From Clostridia bacterium (lineage in GTDB: Bacteria > Bacillota > DULZ01): a stretch of 61,022 nt of DNA. The notes below the pieces were generated by a model. That model was not told where the DNA came from and searched no databases. It was given only the letters and a program-made list of their open reading frames with translations. The stretch lies in contig DULZ01000026.1 of NCBI GenBank assembly GCA_012840125.1, forward strand, positions 1 to 61,022, given 5' to 3'. The position numbers were made by a program, and so were the translations under genes. Shown one piece after another: positions 1,909 through 16,240 of the stretch (position 1 is the stretch's first letter; the number at the start of each line of letters is the position of its first letter).

Positions 1909-3635
1909 TAAGCCACCCCCCGGTAGGCTTGGTGCAGCCGGTAATAAACCCCTTTTTGGGCTAACAAATTTTGATGGGTGCCCGTTTCCACGATGCGGCC
2001 CTGATCCAGGACCAAAATGCGATCGGCCATGGTGAGCGTGGATAAGCGGTGGGCGGTAATGAGGGCGGTGCGCCCCGCCAGGAGTCTTTCTAAAGCCTTT
2101 TGAATGAGTTCCTGGTGCTCCGGGTCCAGGCTGGCCGTAGCTTCATCCAAAAGAACCAAGGGGGCGTCCGTCAAGATGGCCCTGGCAATGGCCAGCCTTT
2201 GGGCTTGACCGGCGCTCAAGATGCGGCCTCCTTTGCCGATGACGGTGTCATAACCCTCCGGCAAAGAGGTGATAAATTCATGGCATTCAGCCTGTACCGC
2301 AGCCGCTTGAATGGACTGCAGGGAAGCATCCGGTTTACCCAAAGCGATATTTTCCCGGATGGTGCCGTGAAACAGGTAGGGAGTTTGGGGCACAAAAGCC
2401 ACCAGTTTCCGCCAACTGCTGGGCTCCAAATCTCCCAGGGAAACACTGCCTATTCTAATTTCGCCCTGGGTAGGCTCCATGAAGCCCATCAGCAAGTGCA
2501 GGATGGTGCTCTTGCCCGCCCCGCTGGCGCCGACCAGGGCGACTCTTTCGCCCGGCTGCAGGGTAAAAGAGACATCGTGAAGCACCGGATTGCCGTTTGT
2601 ATAGGAAAAGCTCACCTTTTCAAAAGTGATGGGCTCTTGGCACATGGCGGCTGTCGCCGGGATGGATTTGCCGTTCCCGGCAGGCAGGGGGCTGTCCAGC
2701 ACGGCGAAGATGCTTTCCGCCGCTTTCAGGCCGGCGTTGCCGGCATGGTACTGGGTGCCCAGGTTGCGCAAGGGGGCATAGAACTCAGGTGCCAAGAGCA
2801 GGATAAAAAACGCCGTGGCAAAATCAATCCTGCCGAAAACCAACCGTAATCCTAAGGCCACCGCGACAATGGCAGTGCTGATAGTCATGAAGAATTCCAA
2901 AAAGAAAGCCGACAGGAAAGCAATTCTCAGCACTCCCATAGTCGCGGTTTCCCAACTGCGGCTCAGCCTGGCGATCACCTTACCCTGGGCGGCGGCCCGC
3001 CCCAATAGCTTTAGGGTCGGTAAGCCTTCCAGGACATCGAGAAAGTGGCTGTTCATGCGACCCAGAATATGCCACTGCTTCTTGGTCCAGCGCTCCGCCA
3101 GGTGGCCGATGAGGATCATGAACAAGGGGATCAAAGGTGCCGTCAAGATAAAAATAACGCCGGTCAGCGAGTCTTGCGGGAATACAGCGAAGAGAATCCC
3201 GGCCGGGATGACGGCGGCTAAGGCCAGGGAGGGAAGGTAGCGGGAAAAATAGACTTCCAGGGATTCCACCCCTTCAGTCACCGTATTGATTAAATCCCCG
3301 GCAGCCAGGGTGCGGCCGTGGACAGGCCCTTGTTGAAAGATGTGATCCAGTAAACGCTCCCGCAGGAAAGTCTTAATCCGGGTTGCGCCCCGGTGGGCCA
3401 TGACTTCTCCCGCCCAGTGCACCAGGGCCCGGAGAACAATGATACCGAACAGCAAGGCCAGCCAGGGATACAGGTCTTTTGGCCCTTGACCTTCCAGAAA
3501 GGAATGGTTTACTATTTTAGCGATAAAATAAGCCTGGCCTAAGATCAGGATACCCGACAAGACACCGGATCCGATCACTGCAGCCAATTCAACCCGGATC
3601 CGTTTCGTCATTTTCATTAACCGGCGGTTTACCAC
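1908..3635 (-). CDS. cydD: Thiol reductant ABC exporter subunit CydD
   Basis: 575 residues: ABC exporter membrane domain, then an ATPase with Walker A GASGAGKST, a slightly altered signature LSAGQAQRL and Walker B/D-loop DEATASLDP. It is the partner of CydC in the reductant exporter needed to assemble cytochrome bd. Start GTG at 3635 is chosen because AAGGGGGGA lies about 7 bases upstream; an in-frame ATG occurs six codons later with no better site. A 248-base gap separates it from cydB. That gap carries the GC-rich palindrome GGCACCCCGGGGCGCC and the small inverted repeat TGCATgatATGCA but no T-tract terminator, so read-through from cydB is likely though a separate promoter is possible. Confidence 0.93.
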   Translation of the reverse strand: MVNRRLMKMTKRIRVELAAVIGSGVLSGILILGQAYFIAKIVNHSFLEGQGPKDLYPWLALLFGIIVLRALVHWAGEVMAHRGATRIKTFLRERLLDHIFQQGPVHGRTLAAGDLINTVTEGVESLEVYFSRYLPSLALAAVIPAGILFAVFPQDSLTGVIFILTAPLIPLFMILIGHLAERWTKKQWHILGRMNSHFLDVLEGLPTLKLLGRAAAQGKVIARLSRSWETATMGVLRIAFLSAFFLEFFMTISTAIVAVALGLRLVFGRIDFATAFFILLLAPEFYAPLRNLGTQYHAGNAGLKAAESIFAVLDSPLPAGNGKSIPATAAMCQEPITFEKVSFSYTNGNPVLHDVSFTLQPGERVALVGASGAGKSTILHLLMGFMEPTQGEIRIGSVSLGDLEPSSWRKLVAFVPQTPYLFHGTIRENIALGKPDASLQSIQAAAVQAECHEFITSLPEGYDTVIGKGGRILSAGQAQRLAIARAILTDAPLVLLDEATASLDPEHQELIQKALERLLAGRTALITAHRLSTLTMADRILVLDQGRIVETGTHQNLLAQKGVYYRLHQAYRGVA

Positions 3636-3883
3636 GAGTATCCCCCCTTAAGTCTTGTAAACCCGGCAGTGAAAAAAGATAGGGCAACCGGCTCCAAACG
3701 GGGCGCGAGGAGTGTCCCAGAGATGGCAAATTAGGATTTCTACGCCTCCCGTCCAATCCCTTTATTTAACCGGCCGGTGACCCTTTTCTCTGCATGATAT
3801 GCACGGCGCTCCTCTAGGCACCCCGGGGCGCCGGTTGCCCTTCGGTAGACCCGGGGCGAAGCGGGAAAGCTCCGCCGCCGGAA

Positions 3884-4888
3884 TTAGTACTCCAGATCTT
3901 TCATATCCACGGGTTTTCTGAAGACCCAGTAAGCCCACACCTGGTAAGCTAAGACGATGGGGACCATAATAATGGCTACAATGGTCATGATGGTCAGGGT
4001 GGTTACGCTGGACGAAGCATTATAGATGGTCAAGCTCCAAGCCGGGTCCAGGCTGGAGACCATGACCCGCGGGAACAGTCCCGTAAAGACCGTGGCTACG
4101 GCAAACACGATGGTAAGGGCCGTGGCGATGAAGGACTTGCCGAACTTGCCTGCGCCAGCCAGCACATAGGACAGGATTAAAGCGACGGCGGCCAGCACTA
4201 AGGCGACCATGGAGATGAACTTGCCCAGAATGTCCGTTTCCAGCAGCATTAACGCCGCCATAGCCACAACAGCGACGATGGTGGCTAACCCTAAACGGGG
4301 CGCGAGTTTTTGCACCCGCTCCTTAATCTCTCCCTGGGTGCGCAGGCTCAGGAACAAGGCACCATGGTAGGAGAAGAGGAGCACAAAGGCCACGCCTGTC
4401 ACCACGGTGAAGGGTGACAGCAGGGAGAAGAAATTCCCCACAAACTGCATGTTGGCATCAATGGGCACACCCCTAAGGAGGTTGGCCACCGCTACACCCC
4501 ATAACAGGGCCGGGACCAGGCTGCCAAACCAGAGGCACCAATCCCATAAGGCCCGCCAGGTGGGATTGTCATCTTTGCTGCGAAACTCAAAGGCTACGCC
4601 TCGCACCATTAAAGCCAGCAGCATCAGGAACAGGGCGAGGTAAAAGCCGCTGAACAGGGTGGAGTACCAGTGGGGAAAAGCGGCAAAGATGGCTCCCCCG
4701 GCGGTCAACATCCAAACTTCATTGCCGTCCCAGAAAGGACCGATGGCATTGAAGACCACCCGGCGTTCCGCGTCGTTCTTTCCCACAAAAGGCAGCAGGA
4801 TACCGGCGCCGTAATCAAAACCTTCCAGGAAGAAAAAGCCGCAGAACAGGACACCGACTAAGCAAAACCACAGTACGTTTAAGTCCAT
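3884..4888 (-). CDS. cydB: Cytochrome bd ubiquinol oxidase subunit II
   Basis: 334 residues with about eight or nine hydrophobic helices, typical of CydB. The N-terminus MDLNVLWFCLVGVLFCGFFFLEGFD and the segment GxFWDGNEVWMLTAGGAIFAAFP are family hallmarks. CydB packs against CydA and stabilises the haem pair of the high-affinity terminal oxidase, which reduces O2 to water without pumping protons but with charge separation. The gene starts 10 bases inside the end of cydA, so translation is coupled. In an otherwise anaerobic gene set, the oxidase probably serves oxygen defence or micro-oxic respiration; that role is inference. Confidence 0.95.
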   Translation of the reverse strand: MDLNVLWFCLVGVLFCGFFFLEGFDYGAGILLPFVGKNDAERRVVFNAIGPFWDGNEVWMLTAGGAIFAAFPHWYSTLFSGFYLALFLMLLALMVRGVAFEFRSKDDNPTWRALWDWCLWFGSLVPALLWGVAVANLLRGVPIDANMQFVGNFFSLLSPFTVVTGVAFVLLFSYHGALFLSLRTQGEIKERVQKLAPRLGLATIVAVVAMAALMLLETDILGKFISMVALVLAAVALILSYVLAGAGKFGKSFIATALTIVFAVATVFTGLFPRVMVSSLDPAWSLTIYNASSSVTTLTIMTIVAIIMVPIVLAYQVWAYWVFRKPVDMKDLEY

Positions 4889-6267
4889 AAGGACACCTCC
4901 TCAGCTGGTACTGACGGCCGTTTGCCGATATCAATGCCTTCGGGACCTAACTTGGCGTATTTCACCAGCAAGTAAGCGTCGGCAATAACCAGCAAGCCAA
5001 TCACCACCGTAAACACGCTCAAGGTGAGCAGCACCGCTCCGGCGGAAACATTGGGGGAAATGGCCTGATCCAGTTTCTGTAAGCCGTAGACGATCCAAGG
5101 CTGCCGTCCCATTTCCGCCACCACCCAGCCGGCCGTATTAGCAATGTACGGCAGGGCAATGGCCCAAGGCAAGACTTTCAGCAGTCCCCGGCTGTTTTCC
5201 GGTTGGCCGGAACGGGAACGGAAGAAGGCGGCAATCGCCAGCAGGATCATCAGCCCCCCCGACAGTACCATCAAGCGGAAGCTCCAGAACACCGGTTTCA
5301 CCGGGGGGATGTAATCGCCTGGTCCGTATTTGGCTTCGGCTTCAGCCTGTAAATCCTTCAATCCCTTGATTTCGCCGGAGAACTTGTTGAAAGCCATAAA
5401 GCTGGTCATGGCCGGCAAGGAGATTTCCCAGTTGTTCTTCTGCTGGGCCTGGTTGATACCGGCTACGATGTTGAAAGGTGCCGGATCGGCAGTTTCCCAC
5501 AGGGCTTCCGCCGCCGCCATTTTCATGGGCTGGGTGCGCACCAGGAACTGGCCTTGGGTATGCCCGATGACGGCCACCAGCAGCACGCTGATTAAACCGA
5601 AAACCGCGGCGATCCTAAAGGACTTGCGGAAGAAATCCAAGTTGCTCTTTCGCGCCAGGTGATAAGCGCTGACACCTAAGACGAAGAAGGATCCGGTGGT
5701 AAACCCTGCCGTGACCACATGGGGGAACTGGTGCCACACATAGGGGTTGGTGAGGAGTTCCAGGAAGTTGGTCATCTCGGCCCGGGTACCGGTCAAGACG
5801 TAGGCCACCGGGTTTTGCATGAAGGAGTTGGCGATTAAAATCCATAAAGAGGAGAGGTTACTGGCGATAGCTACCAGCCAAATGCTCAGGCAATGGACTT
5901 TCTTGGAAACCTTATCCCAACCGAAAATCCAAATCCCTAGGAAAGTAGATTCCAGGAAGAAAGCCAGCAGCGCCTCGATGGCCAAGGGCACCCCGAAGAT
6001 ATCGCCGACGAAGCGAGAATATTCAGACCAGTTCATGCCGAATTGGAAGACCATGACGATACCGGTGACGACGCCCAAGGCGAAGTTGATTACAAAGAGC
6101 TTGCCCCAGAACTGGGCCATTTTTTTGTATGTTTCATCATTAGTTCTTACATAAATAGTTTCCATGATGGCTGTCAGCAATGATAATCCAAGGGTCAGCG
6201 GTACGAACAGGAAGTGGTAGGCTGAAGTCAGACCAAACTGCCAACGCGCCAGAATTAGCTCAGTCAT
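4879..6267 (-). CDS. cydA: Cytochrome bd ubiquinol oxidase subunit I
   Basis: 462 residues. Haem ligands of the family can be placed: His18 near the N-terminus, His in QFPHVVTAGF (the His186 equivalent in E. coli) and Met in EMGRQPW (the Met393 equivalent). The stretch between the quinol-binding half and GRQPW is short, so this is the short-Q-loop class common in Gram-positives rather than the long E. coli type. Start ATG 6267 follows AAAGGAGGG by 5 bases. The promoter region carries an interrupted palindrome at 6292-6310 that could be an operator for the neighbouring Rrf2 protein. It overlaps cydB by 10 bases and heads cydABDC. Confidence 0.95.
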   Translation of the reverse strand: MTELILARWQFGLTSAYHFLFVPLTLGLSLLTAIMETIYVRTNDETYKKMAQFWGKLFVINFALGVVTGIVMVFQFGMNWSEYSRFVGDIFGVPLAIEALLAFFLESTFLGIWIFGWDKVSKKVHCLSIWLVAIASNLSSLWILIANSFMQNPVAYVLTGTRAEMTNFLELLTNPYVWHQFPHVVTAGFTTGSFFVLGVSAYHLARKSNLDFFRKSFRIAAVFGLISVLLVAVIGHTQGQFLVRTQPMKMAAAEALWETADPAPFNIVAGINQAQQKNNWEISLPAMTSFMAFNKFSGEIKGLKDLQAEAEAKYGPGDYIPPVKPVFWSFRLMVLSGGLMILLAIAAFFRSRSGQPENSRGLLKVLPWAIALPYIANTAGWVVAEMGRQPWIVYGLQKLDQAISPNVSAGAVLLTLSVFTVVIGLLVIADAYLLVKYAKLGPEGIDIGKRPSVPAEEVSLWT

Positions 6268-6291
6268 GAGTACCCTCCTTTACCTTAAAAT

Positions 6292-6310
6292 TTATACCCA
6301 AACGGTAAAC
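6292..6310. promoter_or_regulatory. Candidate operator in the cydA promoter
   Basis: The 19-mer TTATACCCAAACGGTAAAC is an imperfect inverted repeat (TACCC...GGTAAA) about 25 bases before the cydA start. On the cydA strand it sits between a TTGCAA and a TATAAA, so a bound protein would block the promoter. It matches 14 of 19 positions of the perfect palindrome GTTTACCCattGGGTAAAC in front of the PilZ gene (34083-34101). The binding protein is not known; the adjacent Rrf2 regulator is the obvious guess. Confidence 0.45.
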
Positions 6311-6401
6311 AATTATTGCAAACTACCCTCCTTTCTATTACAGAATTATGGATAGATTATGTGAAATTATAAGCAAGCCAGGGCAGAAAAGTAAAGGGCA
6401 G

Positions 6402-6836
6402 CTATCTCTTGCACTTGCGGCAGTTTTTGTATTGCTGGAGGAGCTCACCGAAATTATGCCGGGCCAGATCCTGGGCCAGTTTGTGTTGAATTTCACCAAG
6501 CACCTGATGCACCGGGCACCGATCAGACCAGTGCTTGGTACAATAATCCGCGTGGACGAAACAGCGGTTAATGGCAATCGGTCCTTCCACCGCTTCCACT
6601 ACGTCCAACAAAGAGATCTCATGGGGCTCTTTCGCTAGGGCATAGCCCCCTTCCGGTCCGCGAAAGGAATGCAGGATGCCTGCTTTCACCAGGGAACGCA
6701 GGGTTTTGAGCAGGTAGCGCATGGGTATTTCTTCGTGTTCTGCGATATCTTTGGCGGTGACGACGACATCCGGTTCTAAACCGGCTAAGTAGAGCACTAC
6801 GCGAAAAGAATAATCAGTGGCTTGTGTTAATTGCAT
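6402..6836 (-). CDS. Rrf2 family transcriptional regulator with iron-sulfur cysteines
   Basis: 144 residues from ATG 6836, chosen because GGAGG lies 7 bases upstream; a TTG four codons earlier has no ribosome site. An N-terminal winged helix (LTQATDYSFRVVLYLA, then the recognition region IPMRYLLKTLRSLVKAGIL followed by RGPEGGYALAK) is classic Rrf2. Cysteines in NRCFVHADYC...DRCPVH occupy the usual [2Fe-2S] ligand region, so it is likely a sensor of oxygen, nitric oxide or redox state like NsrR, IscR or RsrR. Two further Cys (CRKC) lie at the C-terminus. It is transcribed toward cydA (134-base gap) and away from mop, and may control both; that is inference. Its own promoter and a palindrome lie at 6851-6906. 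Confidence 0.85.
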   Translation of the reverse strand: MQLTQATDYSFRVVLYLAGLEPDVVVTAKDIAEHEEIPMRYLLKTLRSLVKAGILHSFRGPEGGYALAKEPHEISLLDVVEAVEGPIAINRCFVHADYCTKHWSDRCPVHQVLGEIQHKLAQDLARHNFGELLQQYKNCRKCKR

Positions 6837-6850
6837 TCTTTCCTCCAATG

Positions 6851-7164: not shown

Positions 7165-9897
7165 GTGTACAGAAAGGTAGTCCTGAATATCAACGGCATT
7201 GACCGGACGTTGATTGTCGACCCTGAGGCCACTTTAGCCAGTGTGCTGCGGGAACAACTGCTGCTCACCGGTTGTAAAGTAGGATGTGCTCAGGGGCACT
7301 GCGGCTGCTGTTCAGTGATCTTGAACGGCGAGGTGGTACGTTCCTGTGTCCTCAAGATGAGGCGGGTGCCGCCGGAAGCAAAGATCACTACCATTGAAGG
7401 TCTGGCCCGGCCGGACAACCTGCACCCGCTGCAAGTGGCTTGGATGGCTTACGGTTGTGCCCAGTGTGGTTTCTGCAGCCCGGGATTTATCTTATCTGCC
7501 AAAGTGCTGCTGGATCGGAATCCAAATCCCACGAGACAAGAGGTGCGGGATTGGTTCCAAAAGCACCGCAACGCCTGTCGCTGTACGGGGTACAAGCCCC
7601 TGGTCGATGCAGTCATGGCCGCAGCCAAAGTGTTACGGGGTGAAATGCGCAAAGAGGAATTGCTCTACCAGCCTGCCGGCAATAAGATTTACGGTACCAC
7701 GTATCACCGTCCCTCAGCTCTACGGAAAGTGACAGGCACCTGGGATTACGGCGCTGACGTGGCGCTGCAAATGCCCCCCGGCACTTTGCACCTGGCCCTG
7801 GTTCAAGCGGAAGTTTCCCATGCGAGAATCCTAAAGATTGACACCTCGGAAGCGGAGAAGATGCCCGGCGTCTATAAAGTGGTGACCCATAAGGACGTGA
7901 AGGGCAAGAACAGGATCACCGGTTTGATTACTTTCCCCACCAATAAGGGTGACGGCTGGGATAGGCCCATCCTCTGCGATGAAAAGGTGTTCCAGTTCGG
8001 TGATGCCATTGCCATCGTATGCGCCGACACGGAAGCCAATGCCCGGGAAGCGGCGAAAAAGGTTAAAGTGGAGTTGGAGCCCCTGCCCGCTTACATGAGC
8101 GCCCAGGAGGCCATGGCGCCGGATGCCATTGAAATCCACCCGGGGGTCCCGAATATCTATTATGAACAAGGCATCGTCAAAGGAGAAGATACGAAACCGG
8201 TTTTTGAAACCGCCGACGTGGTGGTAGAAGTCAATACTGCCTGCAGCCGCCAGCCTCACCTGGTGCTGGAGCCCGATTGCGGCTGCGCCTATATAGACGA
8301 AGAGGGCAGGCTCACCATTCATTCCAAGAGTATCGGCCTGCATCTCCACCACGCCATGATCGCTCCCGGCATCGGCATCGAGCCGGAAAAACTGCGCCTG
8401 GTGCAGAACCCGGCCGGCGGCACCTTTGGGTATAAATTCAGCCCCACCATTGAAGCCCTGCTGGGAGTTGCTTGCCTGGCCACCGGGAAGCCCGTGGTGC
8501 TCCGGTACAACATGTATCAACAAATTACTTACACCGGTAAGCGCTCCCCCGGCTTTGTGAAGTGCCGGTTAGCAGCCGATAAAACCGGGAAGCTCCTGGC
8601 TATGGAAACGGACTGGACTATTGACCACGGGCCCTATTCCGAGTTCGGCGATCTCCTCACCTTGCGTCTGGCCCAGTTCACCGGTGCCGGCTATGATATT
8701 CCCAACATCCGGGGCAAAGGCCGGACGGTTTGTACCAACCACGCCTGGGGTTCCGCTTTCCGTGCTTATGGTTCGCCTCAATCTTTCCTGGCCTCGGAAA
8801 TTGCCATGGATGTGCTGGCGGAGAAACTGGGCATGGATCCCTTTGAACTGCGTTACAAGAATATTTACCGGCCCGGAGCCACCACCCCGACGGGACAGGA
8901 GCCGGATGTATACTGCCTGGAAGCCATGTTTGACAAGCTGCGTCCCTACTGGGAGGAAGCCAAGAAGCGGTGTCAAGAGCTTTCCACGGATAAGGTCAAG
9001 CGCGGCGTAGGCCTGTCCCTGGGCATCTACGGCTGCGGCCTGGACGGCCCGGACAGCTCGGAAATCCATGTGGAATTGACCCCCGAGGGAGTAACCCTCT
9101 ATGCCTCCTGGGAAGACCACGGGCAAGGCGCGGATATCGGCGCATTGACCCATGCCCATGAAGCCTTAAGACCATTGGGTCTCAAACCGGAACAAATCAA
9201 GCTGGTGCTAAACGACATGGCCTGCACCCCCAACAGCGGCCCCGCCGGCGGCAGCCGTTCCAACGTGATGACAGGCAACGCCATTAAGATCGGCTGTGAA
9301 ATGCTCTTGAATGCCATGCGCAAACCCGACGGCACTTACCGGACCTACGACGAGATGGTGGCGGAAAACATCCCGTTGAAATACAGCGGTAAATGGGTCG
9401 CTTCCATGTGTACCCCTTGTGATCCCGAGACCGGCCAGGGAGCGCCTTTCCCGGTGTACATGTATGAATTGTTCATGCCGGAAGTGGAAGTGGACCTGGA
9501 AACGGGCAAAGCCCGGGTGGTCAAGTTCACCACGGTGGTCGATGTGGGCACCATTACCAACAAGACCGCCGTGGACGGCCAGATTTACGGCGGCCTGGCT
9601 CAAGGCATCGGCTTGGCTTTAAGCGAGGATTTCGAGGACCTGAAAAAGCATACCAATCTCCTGGCCTGCGGGCTGCCCTACATCTATGATGTACCCGATG
9701 ATATCGAGATTATCTATAATATCACACCTCGTCCCTATGGGCCCAACGGCTCAGCCGGCGTGGGAGAAGCACCTTTGACTGCGCCCCACCCCGCCATCTT
9801 GAACGCCATTTACAATGCTTGCGGGGTACGGATCTATAAAGTGCCGGCCCTGCCGGAAGTGATTAAAGCCGAGTTGGAAAAGCTGGCTAACAAGTAG
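7165..9897 (+). CDS. mop: Molybdenum-dependent aldehyde oxidoreductase, single-chain Mop type
   Basis: From GTG 7165 (AGGAG 9 bases upstream) the protein is 910 residues, the size of Desulfovibrio gigas Mop (about 907). An earlier in-frame extension to 6985 has no ribosome site. Residues 1-80 are a plant-type [2Fe-2S] domain with Cys41, 46, 49 and 61. Residues 80-160 are a helical [2Fe-2S] domain with Cys101, 104, 138 and 140. These spacings equal those of D. gigas Mop, offset by one. The rest is the xanthine-oxidase-type molybdopterin domain, ending with GVGEAPLTAP whose Glu868 is the expected base. There is no FAD domain. It oxidises aldehydes to carboxylates at a molybdenum-cytosine dinucleotide cofactor; the physiological substrate is unknown. 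First gene of a seven-gene run. Confidence 0.88.
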   Translation: MYRKVVLNINGIDRTLIVDPEATLASVLREQLLLTGCKVGCAQGHCGCCSVILNGEVVRSCVLKMRRVPPEAKITTIEGLARPDNLHPLQVAWMAYGCAQCGFCSPGFILSAKVLLDRNPNPTRQEVRDWFQKHRNACRCTGYKPLVDAVMAAAKVLRGEMRKEELLYQPAGNKIYGTTYHRPSALRKVTGTWDYGADVALQMPPGTLHLALVQAEVSHARILKIDTSEAEKMPGVYKVVTHKDVKGKNRITGLITFPTNKGDGWDRPILCDEKVFQFGDAIAIVCADTEANAREAAKKVKVELEPLPAYMSAQEAMAPDAIEIHPGVPNIYYEQGIVKGEDTKPVFETADVVVEVNTACSRQPHLVLEPDCGCAYIDEEGRLTIHSKSIGLHLHHAMIAPGIGIEPEKLRLVQNPAGGTFGYKFSPTIEALLGVACLATGKPVVLRYNMYQQITYTGKRSPGFVKCRLAADKTGKLLAMETDWTIDHGPYSEFGDLLTLRLAQFTGAGYDIPNIRGKGRTVCTNHAWGSAFRAYGSPQSFLASEIAMDVLAEKLGMDPFELRYKNIYRPGATTPTGQEPDVYCLEAMFDKLRPYWEEAKKRCQELSTDKVKRGVGLSLGIYGCGLDGPDSSEIHVELTPEGVTLYASWEDHGQGADIGALTHAHEALRPLGLKPEQIKLVLNDMACTPNSGPAGGSRSNVMTGNAIKIGCEMLLNAMRKPDGTYRTYDEMVAENIPLKYSGKWVASMCTPCDPETGQGAPFPVYMYELFMPEVEVDLETGKARVVKFTTVVDVGTITNKTAVDGQIYGGLAQGIGLALSEDFEDLKKHTNLLACGLPYIYDVPDDIEIIYNITPRPYGPNGSAGVGEAPLTAPHPAILNAIYNACGVRIYKVPALPEVIKAELEKLANK

Positions 9898-10001
9898 CAA
9901 TAGTTTTCAGGAGACATCACGCAGCCGGTGCATGACGGCAGGCATCAAGTGGGATGCAGGTCCCACTTGATGCCGGTTTTCTACCGGAAAGGGGAAATTC
10001 C

Positions 10002-12323
10002 ATGGATCAGAAAACCATGCGCGAACTGGAAGCAAAATGCATTCAAGAGAGTCCCCCGGGTTGTACGACGGCCTGCCCTGTGCATGTGGACGCCCGGGCC
10101 CTGATCGCGGCGGTGCAAAATGAGGACTTTGGGTCCGGTGTCAAAATATTTAGAAAAGTAGTGCCTTTTCCCAGGATCATCAGCCGGGTCTGTGATGAAC
10201 CTTGTCAAGCCCAGTGTAAGAGGAAAGAAGCCGGTGATCCTATTGCCGTCAACGCATTGGAGCGAGCTTGTATGGAATACGGCGGCGACTGGGAACCCAA
10301 GCTTCTTCCGGTAGTAAAAAAAGGTAAAAAGATTGCGGTGGTGGGCGGTGGATTGAGCGGGTTGACGGTGGCCCTGGAACTGGCCCAAAAAGGTTATCCG
10401 GTGGTGATTTACGAAAAAGAAGGGGCTTTAGGGGGCAGCATCCGCGCCCTTCCCGCGGCCAAGCTGCCGCCGGAGCTGGTGGAGGCGGACCTGCGGGCGG
10501 TTCAGGAACATCCCTTGATTGAGATTAATCTCGGTATCGAAGTTGGGGCTGGTGGCTCCCCATCCCTGGTGGAACTCCTCCGGCAGTTTGACGCGGTTTA
10601 CCTGGGTACCGGAAGGGGAGATGTGGCTTGTTTTGGGCCGGCCCTGGACAGCGAGGGACGGTTGAGCCCGGATCCCCTGACTTTGCAAACCGGCCATCCC
10701 CAAGTTTTTGCCGGGGGCACCCTGGCTCTCGGCGTGGCGGGTAAGAGCCCTATTATGTCCATTTCTCACGGTAAAAAGGCGGCCAACTCCATCGCCCGCT
10801 TGCTCCAAAATGTCTCCTTGACCGCCGAGCGAGACAAGGAAGGACCTTATCCCACCGCCTTGTATACCAATATCGCAGGAATACCACCTGCCAAAAGAGT
10901 CATGCCGGCCGACCCCCAGCAAGGCTTCACCCGGGAAGAAGCCTTGTTAGAAGCGAAGCGCTGTCTCCAGTGTGAATGTATGGAATGCGTCAAGGCCTGT
11001 GCGTACTTAGCTCATTACGGTGCCTATCCCAAACGCTATGTGCGGGAAATCTACAATAATCTTTCCATCGTCATGGGCATGCGGCATGCCAATAAAATGA
11101 TCAACTCCTGCAGTTTATGCGGCATGTGCCGGGAAGTGTGTCCCAATGGATTAAACATGGGAGAGATTTGCCGGGCAGCGCGGCAGCTGATGGTCAGGAC
11201 CGGCAAGATGCCCCCTTCCGCCCATGAGTTTGCCCTGCGGGACTTCCGGTTCAGTACCGGTGACCGGTTTGTCCTTCACCGGCACCAGCCCGGTTTTACC
11301 TCCAGCAGCGTCTTATTTTTCCCCGGATGCCAGTTGAGTGCATCCAAACCCCAGTATGTGCAAAAGCTTTACGAGTTGCTGTGCGGCAAAATACCCGGCG
11401 GTGTGGGCCTCAGCCTGGGCTGCTGCGGTGCCCCCGCCCAGTGGGCCGGCGCGGAAGAGCTTTTTCGCGAAACCCTGGCGAACCTCGAGCAAGAATGGCG
11501 GGCTCTAGGTTCTCCCCGGGTGATCACGGGCTGTCCTACCTGTTATAGCATCTTCCGCCAGGAAATGCCGGCGGTGGAGGTGGAGACCATTTGGACCGTG
11601 CTGGACCGGTTGGAGGTGGTGGAGGAAAGAGCCGGTACGGGACGCCCCCTGGTTCTGGCGGTGCACGATGCCTGCACCACCAGGCAAGATCAAGAGCTGC
11701 AGGATTGCGTGCGACGCATTGCCACCCAGCTGGGCCACCAGGTGGTGGAACTGGAGCGCAGCCGGTTGACAACGGATTGCTGCGGTTACGGGGGTTTAAT
11801 GTCCTTTGCCAATAGGGAGGTGGCCCGGCAGGTGAGGCGGCGCCGGGTGGAAGAACACGAAGCGGATTACCTGGTCTACTGTGCCATGTGCCGGGATAAT
11901 TACGCCAAAGAAGGGAAGAAAGTTTTTCACCTGCTGGATTTACTCTTTGGGGATCCCGCATTGACCGGTGCGGAAAAAGGCCCCGGCTTTTCCAAGCGGC
12001 AGGAAAACCGGGCCAAGTTGAAACAGTCTCTCTTGCAAGAAATGTGGGGTGAAACAGTGACCGGAGAACAAGCCGGGGTGAAACTGATTATTCCGGAACG
12101 GGTGCAAGAGCTTTTGGAAGAGAGGATGATTTTAGAAGAAGACCTGCAAGCTGTCATTGCCTATGCGGAGAGTACGGGTAATAAATTCAAGCATACGGAA
12201 AACAACACCTTTATTGCGTACTTTCGCCCGGTCACGGTTACCTACTGGGTGGAGTACAGCCCGCAAGGGGACGGCTTCTTGATCCATAATGCTTACAGTC
12301 ACCGGCTGCAGATCGAAGGGTAG
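10002..12323 (+). CDS. FAD and multi-cluster oxidoreductase with HdrD-like CCG domains (dicluster-binding protein)
   Basis: 773 residues from ATG 10002 (AAAGGGG just upstream); in-frame starts further up lack a ribosome site. Visible parts in order: an N-terminal Cys region as in GltD-type proteins (PPGCTTACPVH...CDEPCQAQCKR); a dinucleotide-binding motif VVGGGLSGLTVALELAQKG near residue 110; a ferredoxin pair (CLQCECMECVKAC and CSLCGMCREVCPNG); then two CCG domains of the HdrB/GlpC type (GCCGAPAQW and DCCGYGGLMSF) that can hold unusual clusters. The last 70 residues are unassigned. It resembles the pyridine nucleotide-disulfide oxidoreductase/dicluster-binding proteins found next to Mop in Desulfovibrio and Clostridia. 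Likely role: accept electrons from Mop and pass them to NAD(P) or another carrier (inference). Confidence 0.8.
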   Translation: MDQKTMRELEAKCIQESPPGCTTACPVHVDARALIAAVQNEDFGSGVKIFRKVVPFPRIISRVCDEPCQAQCKRKEAGDPIAVNALERACMEYGGDWEPKLLPVVKKGKKIAVVGGGLSGLTVALELAQKGYPVVIYEKEGALGGSIRALPAAKLPPELVEADLRAVQEHPLIEINLGIEVGAGGSPSLVELLRQFDAVYLGTGRGDVACFGPALDSEGRLSPDPLTLQTGHPQVFAGGTLALGVAGKSPIMSISHGKKAANSIARLLQNVSLTAERDKEGPYPTALYTNIAGIPPAKRVMPADPQQGFTREEALLEAKRCLQCECMECVKACAYLAHYGAYPKRYVREIYNNLSIVMGMRHANKMINSCSLCGMCREVCPNGLNMGEICRAARQLMVRTGKMPPSAHEFALRDFRFSTGDRFVLHRHQPGFTSSSVLFFPGCQLSASKPQYVQKLYELLCGKIPGGVGLSLGCCGAPAQWAGAEELFRETLANLEQEWRALGSPRVITGCPTCYSIFRQEMPAVEVETIWTVLDRLEVVEERAGTGRPLVLAVHDACTTRQDQELQDCVRRIATQLGHQVVELERSRLTTDCCGYGGLMSFANREVARQVRRRRVEEHEADYLVYCAMCRDNYAKEGKKVFHLLDLLFGDPALTGAEKGPGFSKRQENRAKLKQSLLQEMWGETVTGEQAGVKLIIPERVQELLEERMILEEDLQAVIAYAESTGNKFKHTENNTFIAYFRPVTVTYWVEYSPQGDGFLIHNAYSHRLQIEG

Positions 12324-12334
12324 GGGGTATGGCG

Positions 12335-12541
12335 ATGAACGGGGAAAACAATCCGGCCAAGGCTGTTATCTGTGCCAAATGCAATGAGCCGCTGGCCCTG
12401 GGAAAAGTAACCTTGTCATATTTAAACAACAGCTTTCCGGTGGACTTATATAAATGCCCCCAGTGTTCTTTAGTCTTCATTCCCGAAGAACTGGCTCTGG
12501 GCAAAATGGAGCAGGTGGAAAAGGCCCTGGAGGACAAGTAA
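12335..12541 (+). CDS. Small two-CxxC redox or zinc-ribbon protein (DVU_1557-like)
   Basis: 68 residues from ATG 12335, preferred because AGGGGG lies 7 bases upstream; ATG 12329 is too close to that site. Two CxxC knuckles (CAKC and CPQC) about 30 residues apart form a rubredoxin- or zinc-ribbon-like fold, with LGKVTLSYLNNSFPVDLYKC between them. A protein of this size and pattern occupies the same place in the Desulfovibrio DVU_1551-1559 locus, where it is called a redox protein. It may bind Fe or Zn, and may deliver electrons or tether a partner. The function has not been shown. Confidence 0.7.
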   Translation: MNGENNPAKAVICAKCNEPLALGKVTLSYLNNSFPVDLYKCPQCSLVFIPEELALGKMEQVEKALEDK

Positions 12542-12601
12542 ATTTCGTCCCGGTCGCGGCAGGCCATGGCGGGCGTGACGACCGGTAAAGGGGTGAATAA
12601 G

Positions 12602-13042
12602 ATGTTTAACGACGATTTCATCCGCATGCTGGAACTGCACCAGCAAGGGTTTCACTGCAGCCAAATCCTGCTGGCCCTGGGTTTGGAAAAACGGGGCCGG
12701 ACTAATCCCGACTTGATTCGTGCCATGACCGGTTTAGCCGGGGGCCTGGGGTTTACCGGTAAACTCTGCGGGGCTTTAAGCGGCGGTGCCTGCCTGCTGG
12801 CCCTGTACGCCGGTCGAGGCAGTGTGGAGGAAAGAGGCGATGCCAAGCTGGACCTGATGATCAGCGAATTGGTGGACTGGTTTGAGGCCCAGTACGGAGG
12901 GCGGTACGGCGGCATAGATTGTGATGACATTTTGGAGGATAATCCCCTGAACCGGCCCCAGCGCTGTCCCCAGATTGTACGCGAGACTTATGCCAAAGTG
13001 GTGGAGCTCTTGACGGATCATGGTTATGACATAGAAGGATGA
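12602..13042 (+). CDS. C-GCAxxG-C-C family protein (DVU_1555-like)
   Basis: 146 residues from ATG 12602 (AAAGGGG about 11 bases upstream). The family pattern is visible: an isolated Cys in GFHCSQ, the segment KLCGALSGGACLLALY (a variant of GCAxxG), then Cys in GIDCDDI and in QRCPQI. These conserved cysteines suggest metal or cluster binding, and such proteins often sit beside radical SAM or redox enzymes. Function unknown. It lies between the zinc-ribbon-like gene and trsS, as DVU_1555 does in Desulfovibrio; the methyltransferase gene (trsM, DVU_1556) that usually lies between them is absent here. Confidence 0.75.
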   Translation: MFNDDFIRMLELHQQGFHCSQILLALGLEKRGRTNPDLIRAMTGLAGGLGFTGKLCGALSGGACLLALYAGRGSVEERGDAKLDLMISELVDWFEAQYGGRYGGIDCDDILEDNPLNRPQRCPQIVRETYAKVVELLTDHGYDIEG

Positions 13043-13064
13043 CCGGTGGAAGGGGGGAGAACAG

Positions 13065-14459
13065 GTGACGGGGGGACCGGAACAACTGCTGGGCAGGACG
13101 GAAAGTGTTTGCCCGGAATGCTTGAAGGTGGTGCCGGCCTTAAGAGTGGCCGGGGCAGGCCAGGTCTACCTGGTGAAGGAATGCGATGATCACGGTGTCT
13201 TCCGCACTTTGATTTGGGAAGGAGAGGAGCATTACCGCCGCTGGGACATGGCCCGGCTGCCGGTGCGGGTGGACCACCCGGTGACGCCGGTGGACAAAGG
13301 TTGTCCCTATGACTGCGGGCCCTGTCCCGAGCACCGGCAAGACCCTTGCTGTGTGCTGCTGGAGGTGACGGGGAACTGCAATCTTAATTGTCCCATTTGT
13401 TTTGCCTCCGCGGCGGCGGGTAAAAGCCAGGACCCCTCCTTAGAGGAAATCCGGGATTGGTACCGCCGGCTGCATTCCCACGGAAGTCATTATAACATCC
13501 AACTGTCGGGAGGAGAACCGACGGTCCGGGATGACTTGCCGGAAATAGTCAGGCTGGGAAAGGAGTTCGGTTTTCCTCACCTGCAGTTGAATACCAACGG
13601 CCTCAGGCTGGCCAGGGAACCGGAGCTGGCCCGGAAACTGAAAGATGCCGGGTTAGACACGGTCTACTTGCAATTTGACGGCACCAGAGATGACATCTAT
13701 CAAGCCACCAGGGGGCGGGCCTTACTGGAGGAGAAACTGGCGGCCATCGAGCACTGCGCCGCTGCCGGGTTAGGCGTCGCCCTGGTGCCGACCCTGGTAG
13801 CCGGGGTAAACCTGGATCATATCGGGGAGATCATTGACTTTGCCCTCAGCCGCATGCCCTATGTCAGGGGTGTTCATTTCCAACCTATCAGCTATTTCGG
13901 ACGGTATCCCGGTGTCCCGCCGGTGCACCGGCTGACCATTCCCCGGATCTTAAGGGAAATCGAGGCGCAAACCGCCGGGAGAATGAGACAAGAGCATTTC
14001 GCTCCGGTTGGGGCGGAAAACCCTTACTGCACTTTTCACGGGAGTTTTACCCTGCAGCCTGACGGGACTTTGAAACCCTGGCGGGTCCAAGGCTGCTGCG
14101 GGCCTTCCCAAGAGCCGGTGGATCCGAAAGCCGGAGTGGCGAAATCAAGAACCTTTGTGGCCCGGCAGTGGTCTGCCCCGCCGCAGGCTGCCTGCTGTAA
14201 CCGTGACCCGGCGGCGGGCCTGGATGAGCTCCTCCGCCGGATCCATACGTATTCCATCAGTATTTCCGGGATGGCCTTTCAAGACGCCTGGAACCTGGAC
14301 CTGGAGCGGCTCCGGGACTGCAAGTTGTTTATTTTCAGTCCCCCGGGAAAACTCATTCCTTTTTGCGCCTTTAACTTAACGGCGCCGGACGGCCGGAGCC
14401 TTTACCGGCCCCGGCGAGGGGAGGATAGGCATGGGCCGGCCCCGCAGCAGCTTGGATGA
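13065..14459 (+). CDS. trsS: Radical SAM protein, TrsS-like
   Basis: 464 residues from GTG 13065 (AAGGGGGGAGA upstream). After an N-terminal CPEC knuckle and the Cys-rich segment GCPYDCGPCPEH, the radical SAM motif CNLNCPIC supplies Cys105, 109 and 112 for the SAM-binding [4Fe-4S] cluster. SGGEPT and LNTNG follow as in MoaA- or PqqE-like enzymes. More cysteines downstream (CTF, QGCCGP, AACCNRD) may hold an auxiliary cluster. It resembles the radical SAM (seleno)protein called TrsS, encoded beside aldehyde oxidoreductases; the CC pair near residue 345 is where I would look for selenocysteine in relatives. Substrate unknown. The end overlaps the CoA ligase start by 29 bases. Confidence 0.78.
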   Translation: MTGGPEQLLGRTESVCPECLKVVPALRVAGAGQVYLVKECDDHGVFRTLIWEGEEHYRRWDMARLPVRVDHPVTPVDKGCPYDCGPCPEHRQDPCCVLLEVTGNCNLNCPICFASAAAGKSQDPSLEEIRDWYRRLHSHGSHYNIQLSGGEPTVRDDLPEIVRLGKEFGFPHLQLNTNGLRLAREPELARKLKDAGLDTVYLQFDGTRDDIYQATRGRALLEEKLAAIEHCAAAGLGVALVPTLVAGVNLDHIGEIIDFALSRMPYVRGVHFQPISYFGRYPGVPPVHRLTIPRILREIEAQTAGRMRQEHFAPVGAENPYCTFHGSFTLQPDGTLKPWRVQGCCGPSQEPVDPKAGVAKSRTFVARQWSAPPQAACCNRDPAAGLDELLRRIHTYSISISGMAFQDAWNLDLERLRDCKLFIFSPPGKLIPFCAFNLTAPDGRSLYRPRRGEDRHGPAPQQLG

Positions 14460-15774
14460 GTGGGTGCGGGGGAAAGTGGGCCTCGGTCCCGGTGAAGAGC
14501 TGACCCGGGAAAAACTTGCAGATTACCAGCTGGGAAAACTCCGCGCTCTGGTGGATTACGTCTCCCGGCACAGCCCTTTTTACCGGCGGCATTTACAGGG
14601 TTATCCCCTGACCGCCCTCAATAGTTTGGACGACTTAGCGGAGCTGCCCTTTACCACGGAAGAGGATTTAAGGGCTGCCGGGTTAAAGATGCTGTGTGTC
14701 TCCCAGAGCCGGATCAACAGGATCGTCACCCTGGATACCTCCGGTACCACCGGCCGGCCCAAACGGATCTGTTTTACCCCTGCCGACCAGGCGTTGACGG
14801 TGGAGTTTTTTCAACAAGGGTTGGCCACCTTTACCTGGCCCGGGGAGAAAGTATTGATTCTCCTGCCCGGTGAGCGGCCCGGCAGTATCGGTGATTTGCT
14901 GGCCAGGGCCATGCAAAACCTGGGGGTGGTACCCATCCCCTTCGGCGTGGGACATAGCCTGGCGGAGATGCTGGCGAAACTGGCGGAGACCCAAGCCCAG
15001 GTGATCATCGGCATTCCGGTGCACGTGCTGGCCCTGGCCAGGTATCACCGGTTATGGGAACCGGAAAAAACCATTAACCTGAAAAGGGTGCTCTTGACCA
15101 CGGATTATGTGGCTCAAGCGGTAGTGGAGGTATTGCAGGACAGCTGGCAGTGCGAGGTTTTCAGGTATTACGGCATGACGGAAATGGGCTACGGGGGAGG
15201 CATTGAGTGCCGCCGGCATGAGGGCTACCACCTGTACGAGGGAGATTTCCTCTTTGAAATCGTGGATCCGGTGCGGGGGACCAGAGTACCGGCCGGAGCC
15301 TGGGGCGAGGTGGTGGTCACTACTTTGACCAGAAACGGGATGCCCCTGGTCCGTTACCGCACGGGGGATATTGCCCGGCTGCTCCCGGAACCGTGTCCCT
15401 GCGGATCGGTGCTGGCCAGGCTGGGCCCCGTTAAAAGGCGGGTTAAAGGCTGGATCCGGGTGGATGACGAGACCGGTTTCAGCATCGGGGAGTTAGATGA
15501 AATCCTGTTTACCCTGCCGGGGGTGGTGGATTTTATGGTGTGGCGTTACGGTGCGGCGGAACCCTTTTGGTTGGAAATAGAGGTGGAGGCCATCGACCGG
15601 GCTTTAAGCCCCGGACAAATCAGGAGAGCCCTGGAGACGCACCCGGCCATGCAGTCATTGCTGGCCCAGGGCAGGCTGCAGCTCACCGCCCGGGGAATCC
15701 CGGCACCTGCTTGTTACCGACCGAAAACAGGTAAGAGGAGAATGGAGGTAAGAGTGACCCGTGGGCAGCCTTGA
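14431..15774 (+). CDS. AMP-dependent CoA ligase (DVU_1553-like, phenylacetate-CoA ligase type)
   Basis: 447 residues. The ANL-superfamily phosphate loop is LDTSGTTGRPK; FRYYGMTEMGYGGG and VRYRTGDIARLL are the A5 and A8 regions. Length and motif style match the phenylacetate-CoA ligase (PaaK) branch. The N-terminus YVSRHSPFYRRHL is typical of that branch. It would adenylate a carboxylate and transfer it to CoA. Beside an aldehyde oxidoreductase it could activate the acid that Mop makes, or act on a modified substrate of TrsS; neither is shown. Start ATG 14431 has GGGGAGGA 6 bases upstream and overlaps trsS. Confidence 0.82.
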   Translation: MGRPRSSLDEWVRGKVGLGPGEELTREKLADYQLGKLRALVDYVSRHSPFYRRHLQGYPLTALNSLDDLAELPFTTEEDLRAAGLKMLCVSQSRINRIVTLDTSGTTGRPKRICFTPADQALTVEFFQQGLATFTWPGEKVLILLPGERPGSIGDLLARAMQNLGVVPIPFGVGHSLAEMLAKLAETQAQVIIGIPVHVLALARYHRLWEPEKTINLKRVLLTTDYVAQAVVEVLQDSWQCEVFRYYGMTEMGYGGGIECRRHEGYHLYEGDFLFEIVDPVRGTRVPAGAWGEVVVTTLTRNGMPLVRYRTGDIARLLPEPCPCGSVLARLGPVKRRVKGWIRVDDETGFSIGELDEILFTLPGVVDFMVWRYGAAEPFWLEIEVEAIDRALSPGQIRRALETHPAMQSLLAQGRLQLTARGIPAPACYRPKTGKRRMEVRVTRGQP

Positions 15775-16192
15775 GAAAATGAAAGAGCAAATCAGCGCCT
15801 GTTGTCAAGCCGTGATGGAGCAGTTGGCCCAGGCCTGCGGTGATAATTATGAGGAATTGATCAAGAATTGGCTGGAAATCCATGCACATTATATACAAAC
15901 CGTGAATTCTGTCCTGGAACAGTGGGCGGCGGGAGCATCCCCGGCCGGTGCCGCCGGGGATGCCGGTGCCATCTACGCCAGTGAAGCCGTGGTGGAGGTT
16001 GTTGAAGCCGGGACAGGAAGAGTCTTGAGGCGCAGGTTACCCATGGAATACTGGGAAACCGGCAACGGTATCAGGCTGGTGGGCGAGACGGTGGACGGGG
16101 TGGCCACGCACCTGGCTTTCCTGTCGGAAACCGGGGTCTTGCGCATGAAAGACATTTTAGGGCAAGGGCCGGATACCCCCCGTTGTGAATAA
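15761..16192 (+). CDS. Conserved-position unknown protein at the end of the Mop-TrsS operon
   Basis: 143 residues from GTG 15761 (GGAGG 11 bases upstream, overlapping the ligase end); an ATG at 15779 is an alternative start. The N-terminal half is helical and acidic with a Cys pair (SACC) and a Cys in QACGDN. An Ala/Gly-rich linker (ASPAGAAGDAG) leads to a C-terminal part that looks like a small beta-rich domain (EVVEAGTGRVLRRRLPMEYWE). I do not recognise a family. Its overlap with the ligase and the terminator just after it place it firmly in this operon, so it is probably an accessory factor of the same system. Confidence 0.65.
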   Translation: MGSLEKMKEQISACCQAVMEQLAQACGDNYEELIKNWLEIHAHYIQTVNSVLEQWAAGASPAGAAGDAGAIYASEAVVEVVEAGTGRVLRRRLPMEYWETGNGIRLVGETVDGVATHLAFLSETGVLRMKDILGQGPDTPRCE

Positions 16193-16200
16193 AGTGCGGC

Positions 16201-16240
16201 GGCTGTAGGGGAGCCTATTCCCTTGCAGCCTCTTTTTTTT
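16201..16240 (+). terminator. Intrinsic terminator of the Mop-TrsS operon
   Basis: GGCTGTAGGGG (16201-16211) pairs with CCCTTGCAGCC (16220-16230), with two G-U pairs and an 8-nt loop, followed by TCTTTTTTTT. It begins 9 bases after the last stop codon. Confidence 0.85.

What the first reader, a model, noticed from the sequence alone, without database searches (positions are those of the whole stretch)
7165..16240. A seven-gene Mop/TrsS locus of unknown biochemical purpose
One terminated plus-strand run holds an aldehyde oxidoreductase, a FAD/Fe-S/CCG protein, a two-CxxC mini-protein, a C-GCAxxG-C-C protein, a radical SAM enzyme, a CoA ligase and an unknown protein. The order is colinear with Desulfovibrio DVU_1559 down to about DVU_1552 as I remember it. 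A radical SAM enzyme, a CoA ligase and an oxidoreductase bound together suggest either an unknown cofactor or side-chain modification for the oxidoreductase, or a pathway aldehyde to acid to acyl-CoA to radical product. No published function is known to me. It is the best candidate here for an undescribed system.
Basis: partly seen in the sequence, partly recalled or inferred. Interest (0 to 1): 0.85.

Follow-up and report, generated by a model that had tools for sequence, protein, structure and literature searches.

The report
Mop–Trs aldehyde oxidase gene cluster
A widespread but functionally unstudied set of anaerobe genes pairs a well-known molybdenum aldehyde enzyme with a separable radical-enzyme kit that probably works on a tiny partner protein ending in an almost invariant lysine, rather than on the molybdenum enzyme itself.

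Summary
The seven-gene run is real, terminated, and far from chance. Every gene but the last hits a curated NCBI family; those families already name this neighbourhood (DVU_1551–1559, TrsS), but I found no paper giving it a function. Two parts can be separated. Part 1 is a Mop-type molybdenum aldehyde oxidoreductase with its FAD/Fe-S/CCG partner. Part 2 is a 'Trs' module: DUF7479 mini-protein, methyltransferase, C-GCAxxG protein, TrsS and a PaaK-like ligase. TrsS and Mop co-occur almost perfectly in two groups. However, a supported TrsS subclade keeps the module in genomes that have no Mop, beside corrinoid/RACo or HGD-D genes. The crystallised D. gigas Mop, reported with an ordinary cytosine-dinucleotide cofactor, sits in a complete trs operon. 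Both facts argue that TrsS is not a Mop maturase. TrsS keeps all four metal sites of tetraether lipid synthase. The mini-protein occurs in exactly the same 12 of 200 Bacillota genomes as TrsS and ends in lysine in 102 of 103 cases. I infer, at modest confidence, that the module builds or charges a prosthetic group on that tail, making a redox carrier for client enzymes. The window copy lacks the methyltransferase; the only family member in this draft genome sits in a second Mop–Trs cluster.

The parts
7165..9897 (+). Mop-type molybdenum aldehyde oxidoreductase (two [2Fe-2S] domains plus Mo-cofactor domains), orthologous to crystallised D. gigas and D. desulfuricans AOR
   Evidence: NF045668 1670 bits, cut-off 1100; 1348 bits to 1sij and 1325 to 1dgj
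9941..9974 (+). 15-bp hairpin between gene 1 and gene 2; possible partial terminator or mRNA-stabilising stem
10002..12323 (+). DICL: FAD domain, 4Fe-4S dicluster and two HdrD-like CCG domains, ending in a ~95-aa tail domain that exists as a separate gene in Mop-free modules
   Evidence: NF045663 1025 bits; Pfam Fer4_20, Fer4_17, CCG; tail alignment and model
12329..12541 (+). DUF7479 / DVU_1557 mini-protein: two CxxC motifs plus a C-terminal helix ending in LEDK
   Evidence: NF045645 99.7 bits; final Lys in 102/103 distinct relatives of the main clade
12566..13042 (+). DVU_1555-family C-GCAxxG-C-C protein (four conserved Cys)
   Evidence: NF045669 180 bits
13065..14459 (+). TrsS radical SAM protein with the metal-site pattern of tetraether lipid synthase
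   Evidence: NF045646 622 bits; 296 bits to 7tol; all sites conserved
14431..15774 (+). DVU_1553-family PaaK-like adenylate-forming ligase
   Evidence: NF045666 457 bits; 132 bits to 4r1l; motifs conserved
15761..16192 (+). 143-aa protein of unknown family; clade-restricted member of trs loci
   Evidence: homologues in the trs loci L038, L069 and L117 and on short contig L279 of same-family genome G042
16201..16238 (+). intrinsic terminator-like hairpin and T-run closing the run

Best explanation
The run joins a client oxidoreductase (Mop plus its FAD/Fe-S/CCG partner DICL) to an autonomous Trs module. SHOWN by sequence: the module (mini-protein, tail domain, methyltransferase, C-GCAxxG protein, TrsS, ligase) is separable from Mop; TrsS has the four-metal-site pattern of tetraether lipid synthase; the mini-protein tracks TrsS exactly in 200 genomes and has a near-invariant C-terminal lysine. 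INFERRED mechanism: the PaaK-like ligase adenylates a small carboxylic acid and attaches it to the C-terminal lysine of the mini-protein. TrsS, using the cluster that in its relative forms a carbon-sulfur bond to the substrate, and the methyltransferase then functionalise that group. The finished mini-protein acts as a swinging carrier between a client (Mop and aldehydes in this window) and the disulfide-reductase-like CCG site of DICL. In this genome the missing methyltransferase would come from the second cluster.
For: Presence/absence: in 200 Bacillota-sample genomes the mini-protein family hits exactly the 12 genomes with TrsS. Mop and TrsS: 12 both, 2 Mop-only, 0 TrsS-only, 186 neither; Desulfovibrionales 122/6/3/68, Fisher p 5e-42, with two of the six 'Mop-only' genomes having a split-scoring TrsS. 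Separability: six genomes with a Trs module have no Mop hit even at E 1e-30; 12 Mop-free TrsS rows group together (SH-aLRT 99) with other clients: TRAP/corrinoid/RACo/molybdopterin oxidoreductase, or HGD-D/BcrA ATPase. Mini-protein: last residue Lys in 102/103 main-clade and 7/10 Mop-free sequences, third from last in the other 3; no other family in the cluster has a conserved last residue, the highest being 37%. Model: zinc-ribbon-like hairpin, helix 53-67, loose last three residues. TrsS ligand positions for the Rd-type Fe, N-cluster, RS cluster and C-cluster, including the labile Met, are conserved. Ligase motifs including the C-terminal Lys are conserved. Parallels: mycofactocin's invariant final four residues (PMC3023750) and lipoate carriers with Hdr-like complexes (PMC6067878).
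Against: No modified lysine has been observed. A conserved C-terminal lysine could be only a docking or salt-bridge residue. PaaK relatives usually make CoA thioesters. No sulfur-supply gene is constant in the cluster, although a class V aminotransferase (cysteine-desulfurase family) sits inside a few operons. Three Mop-free mini-proteins have two extra residues after the lysine. Mini-protein model confidence is only moderate (pLDDT 70). The D. gigas enzyme reduces flavodoxin in vitro (own knowledge; flavodoxin is called its putative partner in PMC10223205), so it may not strictly need DICL or the mini-protein.
Confidence: 0.3

Rival explanations
1. Substrate pathway: Mop makes an acid from an aldehyde, the ligase makes its CoA thioester or amide, and TrsS with the methyltransferase transforms that acid; the small proteins are redox partners.
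For: Ligase motifs intact; Fe-alcohol dehydrogenases in 10 loci and W-type aldehyde oxidoreductases in 8; Mop-free modules lie beside TRAP transporters, acyl-CoA ligase and HGD-D-type enzymes that act on acyl-CoAs.
Against: The module persists unchanged while the neighbouring metabolic enzyme changes; no constant transporter in Mop loci; the mini-protein tail and its exact tracking of TrsS are unexplained.
Confidence: 0.25
2. Electron-transfer docking only: the lysine tail docks the mini-protein onto DICL or the tail domain, and TrsS with the ligase and methyltransferase makes an unrelated diffusible cofactor used by DICL-type reductases.
For: The mini-protein follows DICL in nearly all orders, even where TrsS has moved; tail domain and mini-protein stay adjacent in Mop-free loci.
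Against: The lysine is kept in Mop-free loci where DICL is split or reduced; mini-protein presence tracks TrsS exactly, whereas Mop does not.
Confidence: 0.22
3. Mycofactocin-like cofactor: TrsS and the other enzymes convert and release the C-terminal residues of the mini-protein as a small diffusible redox molecule.
For: Small radical-SAM-associated protein with strictly conserved final residues and linked oxidoreductases, as in mycofactocin.
Against: No peptidase in the conserved set; the folded two-CxxC domain is itself strictly conserved; TrsS belongs to the tetraether-synthase group, not the SPASM peptide maturases.
Confidence: 0.1
4. One reading: TrsS, methyltransferase and ligase modify the Mop polypeptide or its molybdopterin.
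For: Almost perfect Mop-TrsS co-occurrence; MocA/HD, XdhC and MoeA-like genes share the operon.
Against: The D. gigas enzyme from a full trs operon has an ordinary MCD cofactor at 1.28 A; Trs modules in Mop-free genomes; MocA and XdhC already account for MCD synthesis and sulfuration.
Confidence: 0.08

Closest known systems
Desulfovibrio Mop / aldehyde oxidoreductase (D. gigas 1sij/1vlb, DVU_1559)
   Same: Orthologue of gene 1; same two Fe-S domains and Mo-cofactor domains; D. gigas has the same operon
   Different: The literature treats it as a stand-alone enzyme with flavodoxin; the trs operon around it is not discussed in the papers read here
NCBIfam DVU_1551-DVU_1559 / TrsS family set
   Same: All genes but the last, and the extra operon genes elsewhere, have curated models in this set
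   Different: The models carry no function; the window copy lacks the methyltransferase and adds a clade-specific last gene; Mop-free modules are a second type
Tetraether lipid synthase Tes / GDGT-MAS (MJ0619)
   Same: Same radical SAM architecture with four metal sites, including the labile Met of the C-terminal cluster
   Different: TrsS scores below the Tes cut-off, lacks the Tyr said to be invariant in Tes and has two extra conserved Cys; the hosts include many with no known tetraethers
Mycofactocin and other radical-SAM-made peptide redox cofactors
   Same: Small conserved protein with invariant final residues, radical SAM partner, linked oxidoreductases
   Different: Different radical SAM subfamily, folded two-CxxC protein, no peptidase, PaaK-like ligase present
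sHdr-LbpA lipoate carrier system
   Same: CCG-type Fe-S reductase, carrier protein with a modified lysine, dedicated ligase and radical SAM enzymes
   Different: No homology of carrier or ligase; attachment to the mini-protein lysine is only inferred here

Membership tests
Mop-type aldehyde oxidoreductase (NF045668) | Score over curated cut-off and full-length alignment to crystallised AOR | tested here: met
   1670 bits vs 1100; residues 4-901 aligned to 1sij
Mop-type aldehyde oxidoreductase (NF045668) | Aldehyde oxidation activity with Mo-MCD cofactor | not testable with these tools
   needs purified enzyme
TrsS (NF045646) | Score over curated cut-off; radical SAM CxxxCxxC plus auxiliary sites | tested here: met
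   622 bits vs 490; sites conserved
Tetraether lipid synthase Tes (NF045702) | Score over curated cut-off | tested here: not met
   356 bits vs 450
Tetraether lipid synthase Tes (NF045702) | Invariant Tyr459 position | tested here: not met
   Val or Ile at the aligned column in nearly all TrsS, Ile in the window
Tetraether lipid synthase Tes (NF045702) | Ligand sets of the rubredoxin-type Fe, N-cluster, RS cluster and C-cluster Met | tested here: met
   C16 C19 C40 H43; C80 C84 C87 H90; C105 C109 C112; C322 M403 C419 C434
DVU_1557 mini-protein (NF045645) | Score over cut-off, two CxxC, C-terminal LEDK | tested here: met
   99.7 bits vs 60; sequence ends VEKALEDK
Complete Desulfovibrio-type trs operon | DVU_1556-type methyltransferase in the operon | tested here: not met
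   absent from the window; only member over cut-off is on contig C103
Complete Desulfovibrio-type trs operon | XdhC, MocA/HD and histidine phosphatase genes downstream | tested here: not met
   not found in the window
Mycofactocin-type peptide cofactor system | Short precursor with invariant final residues next to a radical SAM gene | tested here: met
Mycofactocin-type peptide cofactor system | SPASM-type maturase and release peptidase | tested here: not met
   TrsS falls in the Tes group; no peptidase among the conserved clusters
Lipoyl-type carrier system | Covalent acyl group on carrier lysine | not testable with these tools
   needs mass spectrometry

The most novel reading that the evidence does not exclude
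Trs is an undescribed class of radical-SAM-built prosthetic group carried on the C-terminal lysine of a two-CxxC mini-protein, assembled by a PaaK-like ligase, TrsS and a methyltransferase, and used by several unrelated anaerobic client enzymes: Mop aldehyde oxidase, corrinoid/molybdopterin systems and HGD-D-type reductases.
Probability: 0.22. Interest if true: 0.88.

Novelty: new variant of a known kind. Interest (0 to 1): 0.62.

Why it matters
The D. gigas aldehyde oxidoreductase is a textbook structure of the xanthine-oxidase family, yet its operon holds a tetraether-synthase-like radical enzyme, a ligase and a tiny protein of unknown purpose. The same set occurs in at least eight phyla. 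If the mini-protein tail carries a new group, it would be a new protein-borne cofactor and would give a reaction to a bacterial branch of the Tes family, whose bacterial members the Tes authors flagged as unexplained (PMC9433317). The claim can be tested by one intact-mass measurement in a genetically tractable laboratory strain.

Tried and rejected
Selenocysteine in TrsS: in-frame TGA appeared only at or past the C-terminal end in the loci held, so no Sec site was found. Single-gene chance neighbours: rejected by co-occurrence and synteny. Pterin methylation by TrsS as a relative of MJ0619: the original class D methylase claim was not reproduced by the Tes authors, so it was not used as evidence. 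Tail domain of DICL: confident model (mean pLDDT 86) but no significant fold match; best hits are RelE-like with E 0.017 or worse and TM about 0.4, not interpreted. Published phenotype: no DVU_155x gene is named in the DvH fitness paper; its chlorate phenotype concerns the tungsten AOR DVU1179. Papers on DUF7479, DVU_1557 or TrsS function: none found. Rows with frame or trimming errors in alignment A2 were noticed and A2 was replaced by A3.

Full report
OBSERVATION. The window holds seven adjacent plus-strand ORFs between 7165 and 16192 with short gaps or overlaps, followed by a strong terminator-like hairpin at 16201-16230 with a T-run. NCBIfam assigns: gene 1 molybdopterin-dependent aldehyde oxidoreductase (1670 bits, cut-off 1100); gene 2 pyridine nucleotide-disulfide oxidoreductase/dicluster protein (1025, cut-off 530); gene 3 DVU_1557 redox protein (99.7, cut-off 60); gene 4 DVU_1555 C-GCAxxG-C-C protein (180, cut-off 103); gene 5 TrsS (622, cut-off 490); gene 6 DVU_1553 AMP-dependent ligase (457, cut-off 300); gene 7 none. 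Pfam agrees. A 15-bp hairpin at 9941-9974 lies between genes 1 and 2, so a single uninterrupted transcript is likely but not shown.

ALREADY CATALOGUED, NOT EXPLAINED. The models NF045645, 045646 and 045663-045669 form an evident set built for this neighbourhood; the extra operon genes elsewhere also hit members: XdhC-type NF045664, MocA-HD fusion NF045665 and methyltransferase NF045667. Literature searches found only a table entry for TrsS, DVU_1559 in proteome lists and no functional study of DUF7479, TrsS or DVU_1551-1558.

CO-OCCURRENCE. Eighty loci from GTDB species were fetched by TrsS similarity, covering Bacillota, Chloroflexota, Desulfobacterota, Myxococcota, Pseudomonadota, Campylobacterota, Acidobacteriota and Spirochaetota. 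ORF clustering and home-made profiles show the usual order MoeA-like, Mop, DICL, mini-protein, methyltransferase, CGA, TrsS, ligase, XdhC, MocA-HD, histidine phosphatase. In the 56 loci with wide flanks the counts are TrsS 56, ligase 56, methyltransferase 55, CGA 55, DICL 55, mini-protein 54, Mop 50, MocA-HD 37, XdhC 35, phosphatase 34, MoeA-like 12. These loci were chosen by TrsS, so an independent test is genome presence/absence. In 200 genomes of the window's phylum, TrsS and Mop are both present in 12, Mop alone in 2 (fragments at contig ends), TrsS alone in 0. In 199 Desulfovibrionales genomes the counts are 122, 6, 3 and 68 with neither. Two of the six Mop-only genomes turn out to have the full cluster with a TrsS that scored in pieces. 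The mini-protein family hits exactly the 12 TrsS genomes of the first sample and no others.

THE WINDOW COPY. It lacks the DVU_1556-type methyltransferase, MocA, XdhC and phosphatase. The same draft genome has a second cluster on contig C103 (L112) with Mop, DICL, mini-protein, TrsS, methyltransferase, CGA and ligase, and a third, Tes-like radical SAM gene on C62. The C103 gene is the only methyltransferase over the family cut-off. The 143-aa last gene has relatives in the trs operons of L038, L069 and L117 and on a short contig of a same-family genome, so it belongs to the cluster in this lineage.

NOT A MOP MATURASE. The crystallised D. gigas enzyme aligns over its length with gene 1 (1348 bits). 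A genome encoding a 100% identical Mop (G464, therefore taken to be D. gigas) carries MoeA-like, Mop, DICL, mini-protein, methyltransferase, CGA, TrsS, ligase, XdhC and phosphatase in that order (L199). The structure papers describe an ordinary molybdopterin cytosine dinucleotide and a 1.28 A map with excellent pterin definition (PMC10223205). That a covalent change would have been seen and reported is inference. Conversely, six genomes (G303, G336, G267, G359, G559, G217) have a TrsS module and no Mop hit even at E 1e-30. Draft incompleteness could explain one, hardly all. Their modules pass NCBI cut-offs for TrsS, methyltransferase, CGA and ligase where tested. In the tree, 12 Mop-free rows group together (SH-aLRT 99; quick method; the two L209 rows are long branches and unsure). 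Their neighbours form repeated types: TRAP transporter, corrinoid protein, RACo, FrdA-like flavoprotein, molybdopterin oxidoreductase and acyl-CoA ligase (L241, L242, L245/L282; L216 in part); or HGD-D subunits with a BcrA/BadF ATPase (L213, L251). In several of these loci the dicluster/CCG half of DICL and its tail domain occur as separate genes, and the mini-protein stays next to the tail domain.

THE MINI-PROTEIN. In distinct sequences of the main clade the last residue is lysine in 102 of 103; the exception is a degenerate second copy in L041. In the Mop-free clade it is last in 7 of 10 and third from last in the other 3. Other families in the cluster show no such constraint; the commonest last residue reaches at most 37%. 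The usual ending is LEDK. The only fully invariant positions in a mixed alignment are three Cys; the fourth Cys, Tyr31, Pro44, Glu64 and the terminal Lys are at least 90% conserved. The AlphaFold2 model (pLDDT 70) shows a hairpin domain, a helix 53-67 and a loose end. Conservation of an exact protein end across phyla means that the end is used. The precedent is mycofactocin, whose final four residues are invariant (PMC3023750).

TrsS. It aligns to tetraether lipid synthase 7tol with 296 bits. The published ligands of the rubredoxin-type iron (C9, C12, C33, H36), the N-cluster (C73, C77, C80, His) and the labile Met439 of the C-cluster map to C16, C19, C40, H43; C80, C84, C87, H90; and M403, with C322, C419 and C434 as the remaining conserved C-terminal Cys. 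These are conserved in essentially all 112 main-clade and 10 Mop-free sequences. The Tyr459 position is Val or Ile, and C95 and C231 are extra conserved Cys. So TrsS should do Tes-like C-H activation, possibly with a carbon-sulfur intermediate, but it is not a Tes.

MECHANISM. Layered confidence: two-part architecture about 0.9; not a Mop maturase about 0.8; mini-protein is substrate or carrier of the module about 0.45; acylated-lysine prosthetic group as stated about 0.2-0.3. The inferred route is ligase charging of the terminal lysine, TrsS and methyltransferase modification, and redox cycling between Mop and the CCG site of DICL. Rivals are a substrate pathway, docking only, and excised peptide cofactor; none is excluded. 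The evidence that would separate them is one intact-mass measurement and one mutant analysis.

LIMITS. Several Mop-free loci are metagenome drafts. Conservation and neighbourhood cannot prove a chemical step.

Noticed in passing
L112 (own genome contig C103), 4197-13893: A second, fuller Mop-Trs cluster in the same genome, including the methyltransferase missing from the window.
   Followed up: yes
L113 (own genome contig C62), 5746-7098 minus: A Tes-like/TrsS-like radical SAM gene below both family cut-offs, without the rest of the module; groups with other bacterial Tes-like proteins in the tree.
   Followed up: partly
window 184-6848, minus strand: Divergent to the run lie two long minus-strand ORFs of an ABC-transporter-like cluster, two ORFs that read like cytochrome bd subunits (4879-6267 like CydA) and, at 6402-6848, an Rrf2-like regulator; the shared intergenic region may be a redox-controlled promoter. 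Identities by eye, no profile search.
   Followed up: no
window 9941-9974: Perfect 15-bp hairpin between the Mop gene and the rest of the run; could make Mop mRNA more abundant than the downstream genes.
   Followed up: no
L045 7638-8759, L058 ~8388, L069 ~8505, L248 8408-9565: A class V aminotransferase (cysteine desulfurase family; L045 by Pfam, others by clustering or by eye) lies between CGA or MocA-HD and TrsS in some operons; a possible sulfur or selenium source for Mo sulfuration or for TrsS.
   Followed up: partly
L049 5745-7700 minus and seven other loci (cluster c55): Tungsten-type aldehyde ferredoxin oxidoreductase genes lie beside Trs clusters; in L049 one sits next to DICL where Mop would be, while Mop is elsewhere in that genome.
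   Followed up: partly
L241, L242, L245/L282, L216: Mop-free Trs modules beside TRAP transporter, corrinoid protein, RACo, FrdA-like flavoprotein, DMSO-reductase-family molybdopterin enzyme and FmdE-like protein (not every gene in every locus); an apparently undescribed catabolic island.
   Followed up: partly
window 12018-12320 (DICL C-terminus); L101 8720-9004, L213 5238-5546: About 95-aa domain with an AYSHR motif and no Pfam family or significant fold match, stand-alone in Mop-free modules; stays next to the mini-protein.
   Followed up: partly
L033 and L168 (genome G200): TrsS moved to a different contig while the rest of the cluster lacks it, so TrsS can act in trans.
   Followed up: yes
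L207 (genome G378) 9520-12318 minus: A high-scoring Mop gene with no Trs module within 19 kb and no TrsS hit in the genome; the best candidate for a Trs-free Mop.
   Followed up: no
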